Source of the DNA: Marinitoga litoralis | GTDB taxonomy: Bacteria > Thermotogota > Thermotogae > Petrotogales > Petrotogaceae | Length of the DNA: 64,000 bases | NCBI RefSeq assembly: GCF_016908145.1 | Contig: NZ_JAFBDI010000005.1 | Coordinates: 1-64,000, forward strand | Direction of reading: 5' to 3' | In this document: one piece after another, positions 45,561-53,216 of the stretch | Numbering within the stretch: position 1 is the first letter of the stretch | How the letters are laid out: each line of letters opens with the position of its first letter | Position numbers and translations under genes: made by a program | The notes under the pieces: generated by a model | What the model saw: the letters and a program-made list of their open reading frames with translations, nothing else | Databases searched by the model: none | Told to the model about the DNA's origin: nothing

Positions 45561-46196
45561 ATGAATATTGTATTTGATCTAGATGGCACTTTAATTAATA
45601 CAGAAAATATAGCATTACCAGCAATTAGAAATGTTTTAAAAGATTTAAATTATGATCCAAATGTTCCAAAATCTGAAATATTAAAGTATATTGGTTATAC
45701 AATTGATGATATCTTTGAAGGTCTTTTGAAAACTAATGACGAGATAATTATAGGAAAGGCTATTGAATTACTTGATAAATATGAAATAGAAATAATTAAA
45801 AAAGCAGATATAAAAGATATTTTTTTCAATAATGTGTTTGAAGTATTAGAAGAATTAAAAAAAGAACATAAGTTATATATTCTTTCAAATTGTAATATTA
45901 AATATATGAATGCTTTGCTAGAAAAAGGATTAAATAAGTATATTGATTCACCTCATTGTTCTGAAATGTATAATTGGAAAGAAAAAGATTATGTTTTAAA
46001 TTTAATTTCAAATGGAAATAAAGATTTCATAATGATTGGTGATAGACATAAGGATATTGAAGCAGCTAAAGCTAATGGTTTTATATCTATTGGTTGTGCG
46101 TATGGTTTTGGAGATGAAGAAGTAAAAGATGCTGACTATATTGTTCATGATATTAAAGAAATAATACTTATTATAAATCAAATAGGCCAGAATTAA
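45561..46196 (+). CDS. HAD superfamily phosphatase (PGP-like)
   Basis: The 211-residue protein has motif I DLDGTLINTE (residues 6-15), motif II ILSNCN, motif III with a lysine near YNWKEKD, and motif IV MIGDRHKDIEAAKANG. The helical cap after motif I is the C1 type found in phosphoglycolate phosphatases and beta-phosphoglucomutases. Substrate is unknown. It ends the mre operon; the terminator stem includes its stop codon. Confidence 0.88.
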   Translation: MNIVFDLDGTLINTENIALPAIRNVLKDLNYDPNVPKSEILKYIGYTIDDIFEGLLKTNDEIIIGKAIELLDKYEIEIIKKADIKDIFFNNVFEVLEELKKEHKLYILSNCNIKYMNALLEKGLNKYIDSPHCSEMYNWKEKDYVLNLISNGNKDFIMIGDRHKDIEAAKANGFISIGCAYGFGDEEVKDADYIVHDIKEIILIINQIGQN

Positions 46197-46211
46197 ATCT
46201 GGCCTATTTTT
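46182..46211. terminator. Bidirectional terminator between the mre and rodA operons
   Basis: ATAGGCCAGA pairs with TCTGGCCTAT around a six-base loop. A run of T follows on the plus strand. On the minus strand the stem lies just after the stop of the orphan gene at 46204, followed by TTTGATTTAT. Confidence 0.85.
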
Positions 46212-46521
46212 CTCTAACTTCAAATATTATTTCTAAACTTAATGATTTATCTCTAAAATCTGGGGCTTTTTGTTTCCATGATTCTAACTTTTCTTTTGTA
46301 TCATCTATATATTCTTCGTAACATAATTCACAACTTCCTGATCGGTAAAATTTAATAAATCTAATTCTATCTTTTTCTTCAAATAATCCATATGAAGAAT
46401 CTTCATCTTCTAATATAACCTTATTTACAACATCAATAGCTTTATTATCTTTTATTTCTTCTTTAAAAAATCTATTTACTTCATCATAATTTTTAAATTT
46501 TTTAAATAATCGTTTATGCAT
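46204..46521 (-). CDS. Small protein of unknown function
   Basis: I do not recognise this 105-residue protein. It is highly charged, with many Lys, Glu and Asp. It is likely alpha/beta and has two nearby cysteines (SGSCELCYEE), suggesting metal binding or a disulfide. There is no signal peptide or membrane helix. It is the last gene of the operon with rlmH and rodA (nine bases after rlmH) and ends at a shared terminator. Confidence 0.6.
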   Translation of the reverse strand: MHKRLFKKFKNYDEVNRFFKEEIKDNKAIDVVNKVILEDEDSSYGLFEEKDRIRFIKFYRSGSCELCYEEYIDDTKEKLESWKQKAPDFRDKSLSLEIIFEVREK

Positions 46522-46530
46522 AATTACCTC

Positions 46531-46995
46531 CTAATAATGATATTTTTCATTGTTATTTATTTTAAATGCTCTATATATTTGTTCTAACAATAATAAGACT
46601 GCCATTTCATGAGTAAATGTCATTTTTGATATAGATAATAAAAAATCTGCATTATTTCTAATGTATTCATGATGACCTAATGGCCCACCTATAAAAAATG
46701 AAATATTCTTTTTACCAATCCTCCATCTTTCTATTTTATTAGCAAATTCTATAGATGGTAATTGTTCGCCTCTTTCATCTAAAACTACTTTAAAAACATC
46801 TGGTAAAAAATATTTCTCAAACTTCACTTTATCTTGATTTTTATATTCTTCAGGTGTTATTTTATTTAAATCATTTGATAGTGGCAATTCTATTAATTCC
46901 ACTTTGTCATACTTTCTGTTCCATTTTAAATATTGTTCAATACCTAATTTTATAAATTTTGTTTTAGGTTTACCAATTACAAAAATTTTAACCAT
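46531..46995 (-). CDS. rlmH: 23S rRNA (pseudouridine-1915-N3)-methyltransferase RlmH
   Basis: RlmH is a small SPOUT (trefoil-knot) methyltransferase acting on helix 69 of 70S ribosomes. The 154-residue protein has VIGKPKTKFIKLGIEQYLKW near the N-terminus, VVLDERGEQLPSIEFA, the SAM-binding FFIGGPLGH and a late THEMAVLLLLEQIYRAFKI with the conserved C-terminal tyrosine. It lies 11 bases after rodA. Confidence 0.96.
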   Translation of the reverse strand: MVKIFVIGKPKTKFIKLGIEQYLKWNRKYDKVELIELPLSNDLNKITPEEYKNQDKVKFEKYFLPDVFKVVLDERGEQLPSIEFANKIERWRIGKKNISFFIGGPLGHHEYIRNNADFLLSISKMTFTHEMAVLLLLEQIYRAFKINNNEKYHY

Positions 46996-47006
46996 ATAAT
47001 CATCCT

Positions 47007-48119
47007 TTACTCATTATCTAAATAATTTTCATCTGTATATGTTTCTGTAGTCGCTATCCCTTTAGTTACTAAACCCAATAATATAGAAAACGTAATTATT
47101 TGACTTCCACCATATGAAATTAATGGTAAAGGTACTCCTGTTATTGGCATAATCCCCAAATTCATACCAATATTTTCATATACATGGAAAAAGATTATTA
47201 CTATTGTGCCAAAATATATATATTTCCAAAATTTTCTCTGTGTTTTATTTGCGTATATATAAATCCTATATATTAATATAGCATATAATAATACGATAAA
47301 TAATATTCCAAAAAATCCTAATTCTTCTCCTATTACAGATATAATGAAATCATTATGATCCTCTGGAACAAAATTAGATAAATTCATAAATCCATTTAAA
47401 TAACCTTTTCCAAATAATCCACCAGAACCTATAGCTCTTGTTGCTTGTAACATATTGTAAGCCACACCTGCTGCATTTTTTTCTGGAAATAAAAATCCTA
47501 TAATTCTAGCTCTTTGATAGTCTTTCATAAAATAAAAAGCAAAAGGTGATGAAAATAACATTAAAAATAATGATGTTTTCCATGTTCTTTCATGTTGTCC
47601 AGATACATAGGTTAATAAGAACCATAACCCAAATGTAAATAACGTCATGCCCAAATCTGGTTGTTTGAATATAAGTCCTAATCCAAGTAATGTTGTTAAA
47701 GATAATATATAATATGCTTTTTTATTTTTTTCTGACAGATATTTTGCAAAAATCACTAGAGTAAAAATTAAAAATAAGTGTGAAGGTTGAATACCTATTG
47801 GTCCTAATCTTATCCATCTTCTTGCACCATATCTAGCTCTTTCAAATAATAAAACATATATAAGTAAAAAAAACGTTATTCCATACAAGTATGGAATAAT
47901 ATTTTTTATTATTCTTTCTTTTAAGAAAAAAACAAAAAAGAATGCAATAATACCTAGTATTGAAAATACTATTTGTTTATAATAATTTTCTTCTATTGAT
48001 TCATTATACGTTGCAGTTCTTACCATTAAAATACCTATAATTAATAATAAAAAATATATGAGAGGAACAATTATTTCAAATTTTCTCATTCTTTCAAATG
48101 GTTCTACTTTTAAATTCAC
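47007..48119 (-). CDS. rodA: Peptidoglycan glycosyltransferase RodA (FtsW/RodA/SpoVE family)
   Basis: This polytopic SEDS glycosyltransferase polymerises lipid II for side-wall growth. The 370 residues give about ten helices and contain GARRWIRLGPIGIQPSH, KQPDLGMTL, QATRAIGSGGLFGKGY, VPEDHNDFIISVIGEELGF and ITGVPLPLISYGGS. It overlaps the HD-GYP gene by four bases, so its translation is coupled to a signalling protein rather than to PBP2. Confidence 0.96.
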   Translation of the reverse strand: MNLKVEPFERMRKFEIIVPLIYFLLLIIGILMVRTATYNESIEENYYKQIVFSILGIIAFFFVFFLKERIIKNIIPYLYGITFFLLIYVLLFERARYGARRWIRLGPIGIQPSHLFLIFTLVIFAKYLSEKNKKAYYILSLTTLLGLGLIFKQPDLGMTLFTFGLWFLLTYVSGQHERTWKTSLFLMLFSSPFAFYFMKDYQRARIIGFLFPEKNAAGVAYNMLQATRAIGSGGLFGKGYLNGFMNLSNFVPEDHNDFIISVIGEELGFFGILFIVLLYAILIYRIYIYANKTQRKFWKYIYFGTIVIIFFHVYENIGMNLGIMPITGVPLPLISYGGSQIITFSILLGLVTKGIATTETYTDENYLDNE

Positions 48120-50173
48120 AAATACTTCCTCCTAAGAAATTCTGTAAATTGTTTTGCTAAATCTGGATCAAATTGTTTTCCCGCATTCCTTTCTATATCT
48201 TCAATAACATCTTGTATAGACTTTGCTTTTTTATATGGTCTTATAGTTATCATTGCATCAAAACTATCGGCTAAAGTAATTATACGTGATATATAAGGGA
48301 TTTCCTCACCAGAAAGCTTATCAGGATAACCATTTCCATCGAATCTTTCATGATGATGTTTTGCAATTATTGAAAATTCCGAAAGATATGGGTTACTTGC
48401 TAATAATTCATAACTTTTCACTGGATGTTCTTTTACTATTTCATATTCTTCATCATTTAATCTGCCTGGTTTATTTAATATAGATTGCGGTACAAAAAAT
48501 TTCCCTATATCATGTGTAATCCCAGCCCAGTAAACCTTTTTTATTTCTTCATTATCTAAGTTTATATATTCTGCAAATTCAGATGCAATATCTGCAACTC
48601 TTTCAGAATGCCCGTGAGTATATTTATCATAATATTCTAACGCTTTTATTAAAATTAATATAATATTTTTATGTAGCTGTCCTTCTGTTTTTGATATTCT
48701 TTTCAAGCGAATGAATATGGAGGATATTATAGAAAATGTCTCTAATATTTTTATAGATTCTTCACTAAAAGGAATGTTTTCTTTAGAATCTAAAGAAATC
48801 TGACCAATAACATAATCATTTATTTTCAATGGAGATAATATACTTCTTTTAAAAGGTTTGCTAGCTTTTAATATCTTGTTATAATTATCTTCTGAAAGAA
48901 TTATCTTATCCTCTTCAAGAATATTTTCATATTCTGTTGTTTTATTAACAAAAACAAATGTTTTTTCATCAAATTCAATTGTTTTTAATATATTATAATC
49001 ATGACCATATGAAGAAACATATTTCCATTTTCCATCTTCTCTAAGAACTATACTTCCATAATCTGCATTTGGAATTAATTCAATTATTGTTTTTAATAGT
49101 TCATCAAAAAATGATTTTTCATCATAATTTTTTAATACTATATTTGATATTACTTTTAAAAAAGTATCAAATTTTTTAATATTATTTTCTAATTCTTTTT
49201 TGGTTTTAATTAACTGCTCATTAGAAGTTTGTAATTTATTATATGCAGATTCTTTTTCAACTATTACTTTTTTCAAACTATTTACTATATCATTATATGA
49301 ATTTTTTAAACTATTTATCTCATCAATTTTAAATTCTTTTTGATATACATCACCAAATTCATTTAAAGACTTATGAGTTGTTAAATTTTTTGAAAACTCT
49401 TCTACATCATCAATAATATCTTCTTTTAATTCTTTATATATTTTTATTTTAAGTAGATTATATATTACTCCGATTAAAAAACTAATTATAGCTAATAAAC
49501 TTAGATATAATTTTACTTCAATACTATAATTTAAATTGTAATAATACTCTTCACCATAATAATCAAATGTTGTTGTTATTGAAAAAATATTGTTTTTAAT
49601 ATTATTTTTTGTAATAATTTCTTTTTTAGATAGTATAGACTTAAGTTCATTTAATAACAATTCTTTTTGGAAATACATCAATAATAATCCACCAAATATT
49701 TGTTTATCAATTATTTCATAATAATATGGTACCATGTATATTATATAATCATTAAAATTATAATATTTTATTCCACTTTTTAAAGATTCTATATTATCAT
49801 TAATATACTCTATGATTTTATCATCTAAAACATCATTTGGATATGATACATTTATAATATCCATTGATGGCTTATAATCAATTATTTTACTAACCAAAGG
49901 ATTATCCTCTACAATATTTTTTATTATTTCAACATTATTTACTGAATAAGGATATATTTCTGCAATAAGTTTGCTATTTGAAAAAATTCTAATCCTCTGG
50001 TTTTTTATCATATTATTAATTTTGACACATTGAATATTTGTAATATCTCTTAATTTTCTATATTCATAAAACCCAACTAAGATTGTAGTAGTTAATAAAA
50101 CTACTACAATAGTATAAATTAGTGATTTTTTTATAAACGTTTTAACATAATCATTCAAATTCATATTATTCAC
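48116..50173 (-). CDS. Membrane-anchored sensor with GAF and HD-GYP (c-di-GMP phosphodiesterase) domains
   Basis: The 685-residue protein has a first transmembrane helix (about residues 14-36), an extracytoplasmic domain (about 37-222), a second helix (about 223-245), a coiled coil (about 285-345), a GAF domain (about 345-490) and a C-terminal HD-GYP domain. In the last, HDIGKF, HPVKSYELL, HHERFDGNGYP and RIITLADSFDAM are intact, so c-di-GMP hydrolysis is likely. It overlaps a solute-binding protein gene (eight bases) and rodA (four bases), suggesting that a periplasmic signal controls c-di-GMP. Confidence 0.92.
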   Translation of the reverse strand: MNNMNLNDYVKTFIKKSLIYTIVVVLLTTTILVGFYEYRKLRDITNIQCVKINNMIKNQRIRIFSNSKLIAEIYPYSVNNVEIIKNIVEDNPLVSKIIDYKPSMDIINVSYPNDVLDDKIIEYINDNIESLKSGIKYYNFNDYIIYMVPYYYEIIDKQIFGGLLLMYFQKELLLNELKSILSKKEIITKNNIKNNIFSITTTFDYYGEEYYYNLNYSIEVKLYLSLLAIISFLIGVIYNLLKIKIYKELKEDIIDDVEEFSKNLTTHKSLNEFGDVYQKEFKIDEINSLKNSYNDIVNSLKKVIVEKESAYNKLQTSNEQLIKTKKELENNIKKFDTFLKVISNIVLKNYDEKSFFDELLKTIIELIPNADYGSIVLREDGKWKYVSSYGHDYNILKTIEFDEKTFVFVNKTTEYENILEEDKIILSEDNYNKILKASKPFKRSILSPLKINDYVIGQISLDSKENIPFSEESIKILETFSIISSIFIRLKRISKTEGQLHKNIILILIKALEYYDKYTHGHSERVADIASEFAEYINLDNEEIKKVYWAGITHDIGKFFVPQSILNKPGRLNDEEYEIVKEHPVKSYELLASNPYLSEFSIIAKHHHERFDGNGYPDKLSGEEIPYISRIITLADSFDAMITIRPYKKAKSIQDVIEDIERNAGKQFDPDLAKQFTEFLRRKYL

Positions 50174-50837
50174 CTATCAAGTTATCATTTCTATATTTTA
50201 TAATTAACATATTTATTTTTTCTAATAAATTTCTATCTTTTACTCCAATTCCAATATCATTTTTAGTTAATGGTTCTCCATATATTTCAACAGGATATTT
50301 TTTTGATATCCAAATTGCATTAAAAAGATCAAAAAATGCTCCATCAACTTTTTTATTCAATAATGAATTTAAACATTCTTCATTTGTTTCATATACTATA
50401 TAATCAATATTTTTACCTTCCTCCGTCCATTTTTTCACAGTAATATGTCCTGTTGAATTTCTTTTAACTGCAAATTTATTTATATTTTCACTTCCTTTTA
50501 ATTTTAATATTACTAATCCTGTTGTTAAATATGGAATTGAAAAATTAATAAATTTTTTCCTTTCTTCCGTTATATGTATACCACCTATTATAATATCCAT
50601 ATTATTTAATCCTTTTTCTAATAAATCTGGAAATGAATAAATATAGATGTTTATTTTTTCATCTAAATCTTTTGATAATAATTTTATAATATTAATATCA
50701 ATTCCTTTTAATAAGTATCCGTCATTTGTTTCTTCGAAATATGCAAATGGCTCTGTCAAAGCTATTCCTATATTTAATATAGCAAAAATATTTAATTGGA
50801 TAATTATGATAATTATGAAAACTATGATATTTTTCAT
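50166..50837 (-). CDS. Periplasmic solute-binding protein (SBP_bac_3 type) without ABC transporter
   Basis: The 223-residue exported protein has a signal peptide (about residues 1-18, ending near NIFA; no lipobox cysteine) and a single SBP family 3 domain, with NIGIALTEPFAYFEE, LKGIDINIIKLLSKDL, IIIGGIHITEERKKFINFSIPY and GVKDRNLLEKINMLI. This group usually binds amino acids or serves as a sensor domain. There are no permease or ATPase genes nearby. It overlaps the start of the HD-GYP gene, whose extracytoplasmic domain may be its partner. Confidence 0.87.
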   Translation of the reverse strand: MKNIIVFIIIIIIQLNIFAILNIGIALTEPFAYFEETNDGYLLKGIDINIIKLLSKDLDEKINIYIYSFPDLLEKGLNNMDIIIGGIHITEERKKFINFSIPYLTTGLVILKLKGSENINKFAVKRNSTGHITVKKWTEEGKNIDYIVYETNEECLNSLLNKKVDGAFFDLFNAIWISKKYPVEIYGEPLTKNDIGIGVKDRNLLEKINMLIIKYRNDNLIGE

Positions 50838-51676: not shown

Positions 51677-52479
51677 GTATAAAAAAAATATTGAAAATGA
51701 AGAATAAAGAGAAAATTGCTATGATTACAGCATATGATTATATAAGTGCAAAAATTGCAGAAGCTGCTGGAATAGATTTAATTTTAGTAGGTGATTCAGC
51801 TTCAAATGTTATGTTAGGTAATGAAGACACTGTAAAAATCGGAATGGAAGAGATGTTAATATTTATAAAAGCTGTGAAAAAAGGTGCTCCAAATACTTTC
51901 GTTATTGGAGATATGCCCTTTTTAAGCTATCAAGTATCAGAATCTGAAGCTATTAAAAATGCTGGTCTTATTTTAAAAGCTGGGGCCGATGCTGTTAAAC
52001 TTGAAGGTGGAAAACATGTTGCGCCTTTAGTAAATAAAATGGTGAATTATGGCATTCCGGTAATGGGGCATATTGGATTTACTCCTCAATCATATAAGCA
52101 AATTGGAATTTCATCAAAAGGTAAATCTAAAACTGAGGAAGAATTATTAATTGAAAGCGCTATTTCATTAGAAGAAGCTGGAGTATTTTCTATTGTTTTA
52201 GAAATGGTAACTGAACCAGTAGCAAAAAAAATTACTGAATCTTTATCAATACCTACTATAGGCATTGGTGCTGGAAGATTTTGTGATGGTCAAGTATTAG
52301 TATGGCATGATTTTCTTGGTTTAAATAAAGATTTTGAACCAAAGTTTTTAAAAAGATATTTAAATGGTTTTGAATTATTTAAAGAAGCTATTGAAAATTA
52401 CTCCAAAGATGTAAAAAATGGTATTTTCCCTTCTGTAGAAAATGTTTTTAATCCTGTAGAAGGTAGTGATCAAAAATAA
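51673..52479 (+). CDS. panB: 3-methyl-2-oxobutanoate hydroxymethyltransferase
   Basis: PanB makes ketopantoate from alpha-ketoisovalerate, the first step toward pantothenate and coenzyme A. The TIM-barrel sequence of 268 residues has MITAYDYISAKIAEAAGIDLILVGDSA, AGADAVKLEGG, PVMGHIGFTPQ and TIGIGAGRFCDGQVLVWHDFLG. It follows a DUF2520 gene with a four-base overlap. panC and panD are not in the window. Confidence 0.97.
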   Translation: MSIKKILKMKNKEKIAMITAYDYISAKIAEAAGIDLILVGDSASNVMLGNEDTVKIGMEEMLIFIKAVKKGAPNTFVIGDMPFLSYQVSESEAIKNAGLILKAGADAVKLEGGKHVAPLVNKMVNYGIPVMGHIGFTPQSYKQIGISSKGKSKTEEELLIESAISLEEAGVFSIVLEMVTEPVAKKITESLSIPTIGIGAGRFCDGQVLVWHDFLGLNKDFEPKFLKRYLNGFELFKEAIENYSKDVKNGIFPSVENVFNPVEGSDQK

Positions 52480-53216
52480 TTGGTGATAAAACAATATATT
52501 TTGATGCTATAGATTCAACAAATAAATATTTAAAAGAACATTGGAAAGAATTACCTTCAGAAACTGTTGTTTGGGCTGCAAAACAATATGGTGGATATGG
52601 TAGAATGAAAAGAGAATGGGTATCTCCTAGAGGTGGTCTTTGGTTTTCAGTATTGTTTAAGCCAAAAAATAGACCCATGAACCCTTGGCATTATGTTAGA
52701 CTTTATACAATGGCTGTTAAAGACGTACTTAAAAAATATAAACTTAATACAATAATAAAATGGCCAAATGATTTATTAGTAGATAATAAGAAAATTTGTG
52801 GAATATTGGGTGAAGGAATATATACCGGTAAAACTTTTGCTGCTATCATTGTAGGTATTGGTTTAAATGTAAATAATCATATACCTGATGAACTAAAAGA
52901 TATAGCTACTAGTTATATTGATGAAAAAAATAAAGAATTAAATTTAGAAAGATTATTAAAACAAATAAATAACACTGCTTACTATGATTATTATATTAAA
53001 TATTTTAAAAATAATACAATTTCCATTTTCACAAAAAAATGGATAAGTAATCTTAACATAAGAAACGGAGATTTTATAAAAATCATCTCTCAAAATGGAG
53101 AAAAACGTGGTAAAATTGTTTCAATACATGGGGACTATTTAGAAGTAATGTTCGAAGATGGAATTATAGAAAATGTTTATGCTGGAGAGGTTTCTTTAAG
53201 AAAGGAGAGTGTGTAA
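52479..53216 (+). CDS. birA: Biotin--[acetyl-CoA-carboxylase] ligase, non-standard start codon
   Basis: BirA activates biotin with ATP and attaches it to biotin carboxyl carrier proteins. The catalytic domain shows IYFDAIDSTNKYL, the biotinyl-AMP loop YGGYGRMKREWVSPRGGLWFS, KWPNDLLVDNKKICGILGE and GIGLNVNNH; a small C-terminal domain follows. There is no N-terminal HTH, so it is the non-repressor type. The conserved residues before the first in-frame ATG (52605) prove that translation starts earlier. No ATG, GTG or TTG exists in frame after the upstream stop. The candidates are ATT at 52479 (overlapping the panB stop as TAATT, preceded by GTGATC) or ATA at 52494 (preceded by GGTGAT). Confidence 0.85.
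   Translation: MGDKTIYFDAIDSTNKYLKEHWKELPSETVVWAAKQYGGYGRMKREWVSPRGGLWFSVLFKPKNRPMNPWHYVRLYTMAVKDVLKKYKLNTIIKWPNDLLVDNKKICGILGEGIYTGKTFAAIIVGIGLNVNNHIPDELKDIATSYIDEKNKELNLERLLKQINNTAYYDYYIKYFKNNTISIFTKKWISNLNIRNGDFIKIISQNGEKRGKIVSIHGDYLEVMFEDGIIENVYAGEVSLRKESV

What the first reader, a model, noticed from the sequence alone, without database searches (positions are those of the whole stretch)
47007..50837. Solute-binding protein, membrane HD-GYP and RodA translated as one unit
A free periplasmic amino-acid-type binding protein with no ABC partners overlaps (eight bases) a two-helix sensor with an extracytoplasmic domain, GAF and an intact HD-GYP domain, which overlaps rodA by four bases. The simplest model is that the liganded binding protein docks on the HD-GYP sensor and lowers c-di-GMP, with cell-wall elongation in the same operon. 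PBP2 lies in another operon, so RodA is set apart.
Basis: partly seen in the sequence, partly recalled or inferred. Interest (0 to 1): 0.6.

Follow-up and report, generated by a model that had tools for sequence, protein, structure and literature searches.

The report
Marinitoga binding-protein/HD-GYP pair before rodA
In every Marinitoga genome examined, a membrane enzyme predicted to destroy the signal molecule c-di-GMP, with a small periplasmic amino-acid-binding protein gene (decayed in one species) in front of it, precedes the cell-elongation gene rodA; it is a real, genus-wide variant of a known receptor type, but nothing yet shows that the two proteins touch or that they control RodA.

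Summary
The gene run is real. A family-3 solute-binding protein (SBP, 223 aa, no lipobox), a two-TM coil-GAF-HD-GYP protein and rodA follow each other, then rlmH, a 105-aa ORF and a terminator. The eight-base overlap comes from a GTG start; the supported ATG (50164, SD AGGTGA) leaves one base after the SBP stop. The four-base overlap with rodA is sound.

The order is kept in all six other Marinitoga genomes (SBP a pseudogene in one) and absent at rodA in six other genera of the family, so the pair is a genus-level insertion. RodA is apart from the PBP2 operon in those genera too.

For a functional link: the closest GAF-HD-GYP modules elsewhere in the phylum are mostly SBP_bac_3-TM-GAF-HD-GYP fusions; two exist in this genome. 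Against tight docking: the sister species keeps HD-GYP but lost the SBP; the ectodomain (no Pfam match, only in Marinitoga) is 30-57% identical where RodA is 83-92%; the HD-GYP gene's history conflicts with those of SBP and RodA.

Best reading: an unfused variant of a known receptor, the SBP an optional co-receptor of a c-di-GMP phosphodiesterase, rodA a co-transcribed neighbour. Docking, ligand, activity and any effect on RodA are inferred.

The parts
50166..50837 (-). free family-3 solute-binding protein, 223 aa, N-terminal signal sequence without lipobox Cys, amino-acid anchors R93 and D170
   Evidence: SBP_bac_3 1.1e-15; aligned to solved amino-acid SBPs, R and D match; R93 and D170 invariant in 6 intact orthologues
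48116..50164 (-). membrane coil-GAF-HD-GYP protein, 682 aa from the supported ATG (GTG alternative at 50173)
   Evidence: HD_5 4.8e-39; PmGH 4mcw 4.1e-39 over residues 345-674; start compared in 7 genomes
50170..50175 (-). Shine-Dalgarno AGGTGA for the ATG start at 50164
   Evidence: read from sequence
49505..50062 (-). extracytoplasmic domain between the two TM helices, about 185 aa, hypervariable, core DYKP..YP..PYxY..FxG
   Evidence: no repeated Pfam match; one chance-like PDB match; found only in Marinitoga; AF2 model unusable
48704..49141 (-). GAF domain
   Evidence: weak in Pfam (0.0029), supported by alignment to PmGH
48119..48676 (-). HD-GYP domain: Y515 in place of PmGH E185; H519, H551, D552, K555, H580, H604, H605, D633 present
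47007..48119 (-). rodA, 370 aa, GTG start, 4-base overlap with the HD-GYP stop
   Evidence: FTSW_RODA_SPOVE 1.7e-80; rodA_shape best NCBIfam hit, below its cut-off
48128..48133 (-). Shine-Dalgarno AGGAGG for rodA, inside the HD-GYP coding region
   Evidence: read from sequence
46531..46995 (-). rlmH, next gene of the same run
   Evidence: SPOUT_MTase 8.6e-45
46204..46521 (-). 105-aa ORF of unknown function, kept in all 7 Marinitoga loci
46180..46209 (-). terminator-like hairpin, 12 pairs, ending the run
   Evidence: 1 found in the region scanned; 0.7 expected from shuffles

Best explanation
A genus-wide operon SBP - HD-GYP - rodA - rlmH - 105-aa ORF. In an ancestor of Marinitoga two genes were placed in the divergent intergenic region in front of rodA-rlmH and became closely spaced with rodA. 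They are an unfused variant of the SBP_bac_3-TM-GAF-HD-GYP receptors common in the phylum: the binding protein is soluble and the enzyme carries its own membrane ectodomain. Most likely the ligand-loaded SBP acts as an optional co-receptor that changes the activity of the c-di-GMP phosphodiesterase, comparable in logic to NspS-MbaA; rodA is a co-transcribed neighbour rather than a dedicated target. Shown: the genes, their order, conservation, HD-GYP ligand residues, and fusions elsewhere. Inferred: co-transcription, co-receptor role, ligand class, enzyme activity, sign of the effect, absence of a specific RodA function.
For: Same order in 7 Marinitoga genomes with minimal spacing; absent at rodA in six other genera of the family. 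Of the non-Marinitoga loci fetched from the best GAF-HD-GYP matches in 60 relatives, the first is an SBP_bac_3-TM-GAF-HD-GYP fusion, and SBP_bac_3 is Pfam-confirmed in seven such fusions and in the SBP halves of two adjacent split pairs. Own genome: a 678-aa fusion (Pfam-confirmed) and an 804-aa one. SBP under purifying selection, dN/dS 0.12-0.27, amino-acid anchors kept. HD-GYP ligands kept. 19 HD_5 and 16 GGDEF matches in the genome. Precedents: NspS-MbaA (PMC8967002); ArtI with the dCACHE enzyme STM1987, and SBP_bac_3 in RmcA (PMC8846402).
Against: G006 lacks an intact SBP but keeps an intact HD-GYP gene. Its ectodomain is no faster than that of G000 against outgroups, though dN/dS for the G000/G006 pair (ectodomain 0.49, HD-GYP 0.23) is higher than for G004/G005, which keep the SBP (0.26, 0.11). 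Ectodomain 30-57% identical where SBP is 55-73% and RodA 83-92%. HD-GYP tree conflicts with SBP and RodA trees. The SBP's nearest relative outside the genus (G050, 37%) has no HD-GYP gene beside it. In a P. aeruginosa study, SBPs encoded near sensor kinases did not activate them (PMC11113362).
Confidence: 0.42

Rival explanations
1. Two independent sensors share an operon. The HD-GYP protein senses its own ligand through its ectodomain and GAF; the SBP serves an ABC importer or a chemoreceptor in trans.
For: SBP lost and HD-GYP kept in G006; discordant gene trees; ectodomain evolves much faster than the SBP; an amino-acid-type ABC cassette exists at C1; chemoreceptor partners of SBPs are often encoded elsewhere (PMC11113362).
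Against: That ABC cassette has its own SBP; fusions of SBP_bac_3 to this GAF-HD-GYP type are common in the phylum; order kept in the genus.
Confidence: 0.35
2. The operon couples c-di-GMP to cell elongation: the HD-GYP protein regulates RodA locally.
For: Four-base overlap with rodA in 6 of 7 genomes.
Against: RodA evolves conservatively while its neighbour is hypervariable and apparently exchanged; rodA does without the pair in six other genera; rlmH is in the same run; no c-di-GMP binding site on RodA was sought; one literature search for RodA with c-di-GMP gave nothing direct.
Confidence: 0.08
3. Insertion only: a sensor pair landed in front of rodA and is kept there because it now carries rodA's promoter and translational coupling.
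For: Genus-limited insertion; in G006 the last SBP codons and the Shine-Dalgarno of the HD-GYP gene survive while the rest of SBP decays.
Against: HD-GYP ligands are invariant and SBP shows dN/dS of 0.12-0.27 where present, so both genes are selected as proteins.
Confidence: 0.15

Closest known systems
SBP_bac_3-TM-GAF-HD-GYP fusion receptors of Thermotogota (L140, L141, L143, L147, L151; own genome L095)
   Same: SBP_bac_3 plus GAF-HD-GYP; in L140, L141, L143, L147 and L151 the YTxGHSE[RN]V-type HD-GYP
   Different: here the SBP is soluble and separate, and the HD-GYP protein has its own two-TM ectodomain absent from the fusions
NspS-MbaA of Vibrio cholerae
   Same: free periplasmic SBP and a membrane c-di-GMP enzyme (PMC8967002)
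   Different: NspS binds polyamines; MbaA is GGDEF-EAL, not HD-GYP; the SBP-enzyme interaction has experimental support there, none here
ArtI and STM1987 of Salmonella
   Same: putative amino-acid SBP required for sensing by a membrane c-di-GMP enzyme with its own periplasmic domain (PMC8846402)
   Different: diguanylate cyclase with dCACHE; here a phosphodiesterase-type domain and an unclassified ectodomain
PmGH (4mcw), Persephonella marina GAF-HD-GYP
   Same: GAF-HD-GYP architecture and seven of the eight metal ligands
   Different: E185 is Y here (two-metal subgroup predicted); membrane-bound with an ectodomain

Membership tests
SBP family 3 (PF00497) | profile match above cut-off | tested here: met
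   57.9 bits, cut-off 26.4
SBP family 3 (PF00497) | alpha-amino-acid anchors (Arg, Asp) in the pocket | tested here: met
   R93 and D170 align with solved amino-acid SBPs and are invariant in 6 orthologues; H88 stands where Ser/Thr is usual (roles of the positions from general knowledge of LAO/HisJ-type SBPs)
SBP family 3 (PF00497) | ABC partner genes adjacent (for an importer) | tested here: not met
   none adjacent
HD-GYP phosphodiesterase | HD motif, HHExxDGxGYP motif and metal ligands | tested here: met
   seven of eight PmGH ligands plus K555
HD-GYP phosphodiesterase | E/D-T-G signature of the three-metal subgroup | tested here: not met
   Y515-T-H in the window, Y-T-[KRH] in the genus: Y/F subgroup
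HD-GYP phosphodiesterase | c-di-GMP hydrolysis | not testable with these tools
   3'3'-cGAMP is not excluded: 5z7c, a cGAMP phosphodiesterase, is the second PDB match
SBP-activated c-di-GMP receptor (NspS-MbaA-like) | SBP and membrane c-di-GMP enzyme encoded together | tested here: met
SBP-activated c-di-GMP receptor (NspS-MbaA-like) | liganded SBP binds the ectodomain | not testable with these tools
   complex not predicted; indirect evidence is mixed
RodA (SEDS glycosyltransferase) | RodA model match | tested here: met
   Pfam 1.7e-80; NCBIfam RodA_shape subfamily cut-off passed; equivalog cut-off missed by 28 bits
Cache / known ectodomain families | Pfam or PDB match of the ectodomain | tested here: inconclusive
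   no repeated Pfam match; one chance-like PDB match; AF2 model pLDDT 48

The most novel reading that the evidence does not exclude
A c-di-GMP receptor whose new, Marinitoga-only ectodomain is exchanged between species while its amino-acid-binding partner and the RodA gene on either side stay in place, so that a variable receptor reads envelope or nutrient signals through a constant SBP and tunes c-di-GMP together with cell elongation.
Probability: 0.1. Interest if true: 0.6.

Novelty: new variant of a known kind. Interest (0 to 1): 0.4.

Why it matters
HD-GYP enzymes are common in these thermophiles (19 matches in this genome) but their inputs are largely unknown. A free binding protein next to one, in a phylum where the same two domains are often fused, gives a testable receptor with a screenable ligand. 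The natural SBP loss in one species and the gene-tree conflict provide comparisons that can decide whether the SBP is needed. If no partnership is found, it is a warning against reading operons as complexes.

Tried and rejected
AF2 of the ectodomain with the window and M. lauensis only (pLDDT 48) was too poor for a fold search, so none was run. Orthologues from genome-search loci were not put into the structure job because the tool's list of allowed sources does not name them. Pfam and PDB profile searches of the ectodomain gave only isolated or chance-like matches, for example an isopropylmalate dehydratase chain. Mirror-tree correlation of six taxa (SBP/HD-GYP 0.74, SBP/RodA 0.61, SBP/ectodomain 0.50) is too small a set to decide anything. 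'RodA set apart from PBP2 by this operon' rejected: they are apart in the other genera of the family too. A sequencing fault as the cause of the broken G006 SBP rejected: stops in all frames plus loss of much of the gene. A weak sensor match in G020 (8e-4) lay in an ordinary gene and was dropped. The promoter scan found 63 sites against 52.6 expected and was not used.

Full report
What is there. On the minus strand lie an SBP (50837-50166), an HD-GYP protein (50164-48116), rodA (48119-47007), rlmH (46995-46531) and a 105-aa ORF (46521-46204), followed by a terminator-like hairpin at 46209-46180. The eight-base overlap of the first two genes is an effect of the mechanical GTG start. The ATG at 50164 has AGGTGA five bases upstream and matches the starts in relatives, leaving one base between stop and start. 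rodA starts at GTG 48119 inside the HD-GYP stop, with AGGAGG eight bases before; this four-base overlap is kept in six of seven Marinitoga genomes. Co-transcription is inferred from spacing, not measured.

Where it comes from. A named match for one relative is Marinitoga lauensis LG1 (its contig length and position agree with G002), so the genus is taken as Marinitoga. All six same-genus genomes have the order, with the SBP a pseudogene in G006. In the loci read from six other genera of the family (L057-L062), rodA lies beside the same birA-hpt-punA neighbours, with no SBP or HD-GYP gene between them and with rlmH next or one gene further on. The pair is therefore most simply an insertion in the Marinitoga ancestor. 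The mreB-mreC-mreD-PBP2 run is on the opposite strand and converges on the rodA run; in the other genera PBP2 is also away from rodA.

The proteins. The SBP belongs to family 3, has no lipobox cysteine, and keeps the arginine and aspartate that hold an amino acid in solved relatives (the roles of these residues are from general knowledge). Position 88 is histidine in all six where Ser or Thr is usual. It ends shortly after the last stretch aligned to the solved proteins. The HD-GYP protein has two TM helices, a 185-aa ectodomain, a coil, GAF and HD-GYP. GAF-HD-GYP aligns with PmGH, whose ligands were defined in PMC4159591: H519, H551, D552, H580, H604, H605 and D633 are present and invariant in the genus; the eighth, E185, is Y515. 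That paper predicts a two-metal centre for the Y/F subgroup. Activity was not tested, and 3'3'-cGAMP is a possible substrate, since the second PDB match is a cGAMP phosphodiesterase.

Evidence for a link. The GAF-HD-GYP part was searched in 60 relatives and 20 loci among the best outside the genus were read. By architecture, 11 encode SBP-TM-GAF-HD-GYP fusions and one is an SBP-TM gene overlapping a GAF-HD-GYP gene; the rest carry other sensors, none, or are cut off. Pfam confirms SBP_bac_3 in seven of these fusions (L140, L141, L143, L144, L147, L151, L153), in the split pair L142, in a second split pair L106 and in the own-genome fusion L095; the remaining assignments rest on reading the sequence. 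A tree of these modules puts the seven Marinitoga proteins in one clade (100/100), but the branches around it are unresolved, so it does not show that they descend from a fusion. The fusions make SBP-to-HD-GYP signalling plausible; they do not show docking of a free SBP on this ectodomain.

Evidence against a tight pair. In G006, the nearest relative by RodA (92%), the SBP is a remnant with stops in all frames and a large deletion, while the HD-GYP gene is intact. Among Marinitoga the ectodomain is 30-57% identical to the window's, GAF 45-76%, HD-GYP 66-84%, SBP 55-73%, RodA 83-92%. SBP and RodA trees join G002 with G003 (97/95, 98/95), and holding G002 with the G000 side is rejected (AU p 0.004 and 0.0006). 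The HD-GYP gene joins G002 with G000 and G006 (100/99) and rejects G002 with G003 (p 0.0013 whole gene, 0.0003 coil plus GAF; N-terminal TM-ectodomain part alone 0.068, HD-GYP domain alone 0.050). These groups were chosen after seeing the distances, with six or seven sequences, so the p-values are guides. The simplest cause is exchange of the HD-GYP gene between species; rate differences are not excluded.

Ectodomain. Its profile finds only the seven Marinitoga proteins at convincing scores among 61 genomes; it has no repeated Pfam match and one implausible PDB match. The AF2 model is unusable. It is an unclassified domain, possibly a divergent member of a known fold.

Network. The genome has 19 HD_5, 16 GGDEF (15 over cut-off) and one PilZ match, so this enzyme is one of many and a specific effect on RodA would need local action.

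Known relatives. NspS-MbaA (PMC8967002), ArtI-STM1987 and RmcA (PMC8846402) show that SBPs or SBP domains can feed c-di-GMP enzymes. PMC11113362 notes gene adjacency for 10 of 11 characterised SBP-kinase pairs, and also reports neighbouring genes without a functional tie.

Verdict. An unfused, genus-specific variant of a known receptor kind. Co-receptor model 0.42, independent sensors 0.35, insertion with coupling only 0.15, dedicated RodA control 0.08.

Noticed in passing
window 52476-53216 (+): The BirA-type biotin ligase frame is open back to the panB stop with no ATG, GTG or TTG in the N-terminal part that relatives have; ATA (52476) or ATT (52479) would be the start. ORFs of 203-204 aa in G002, G003 and G004 look alike.
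   Followed up: partly
L052:8561-9784 (+): In M. lauensis (G002) a 407-aa gene lies between rodA and rlmH, absent from this place in the other Marinitoga loci.
   Followed up: no
L099:1503-3768 (-); also L082, L083: SBP-GGDEF fusions lie next to genes of small secreted proteins, in L082 and L083 two of them, an operon type seen in several Marinitoga.
   Followed up: no
window 46204-46521 (-): 105-aa protein conserved in the genus (46-82% identity) with no convincing family match.
   Followed up: no
L106:1143-3169 and L142:405-2440: Two split receptors: an SBP-TM gene overlapping a GAF-HD-GYP gene by four bases.
   Followed up: partly
L107:1100-5290: In G001 a 475-aa protein with two SBP_bac_3 domains precedes a kinase-like gene and an HD-GYP protein with a receiver-like N-terminus.
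   Followed up: no
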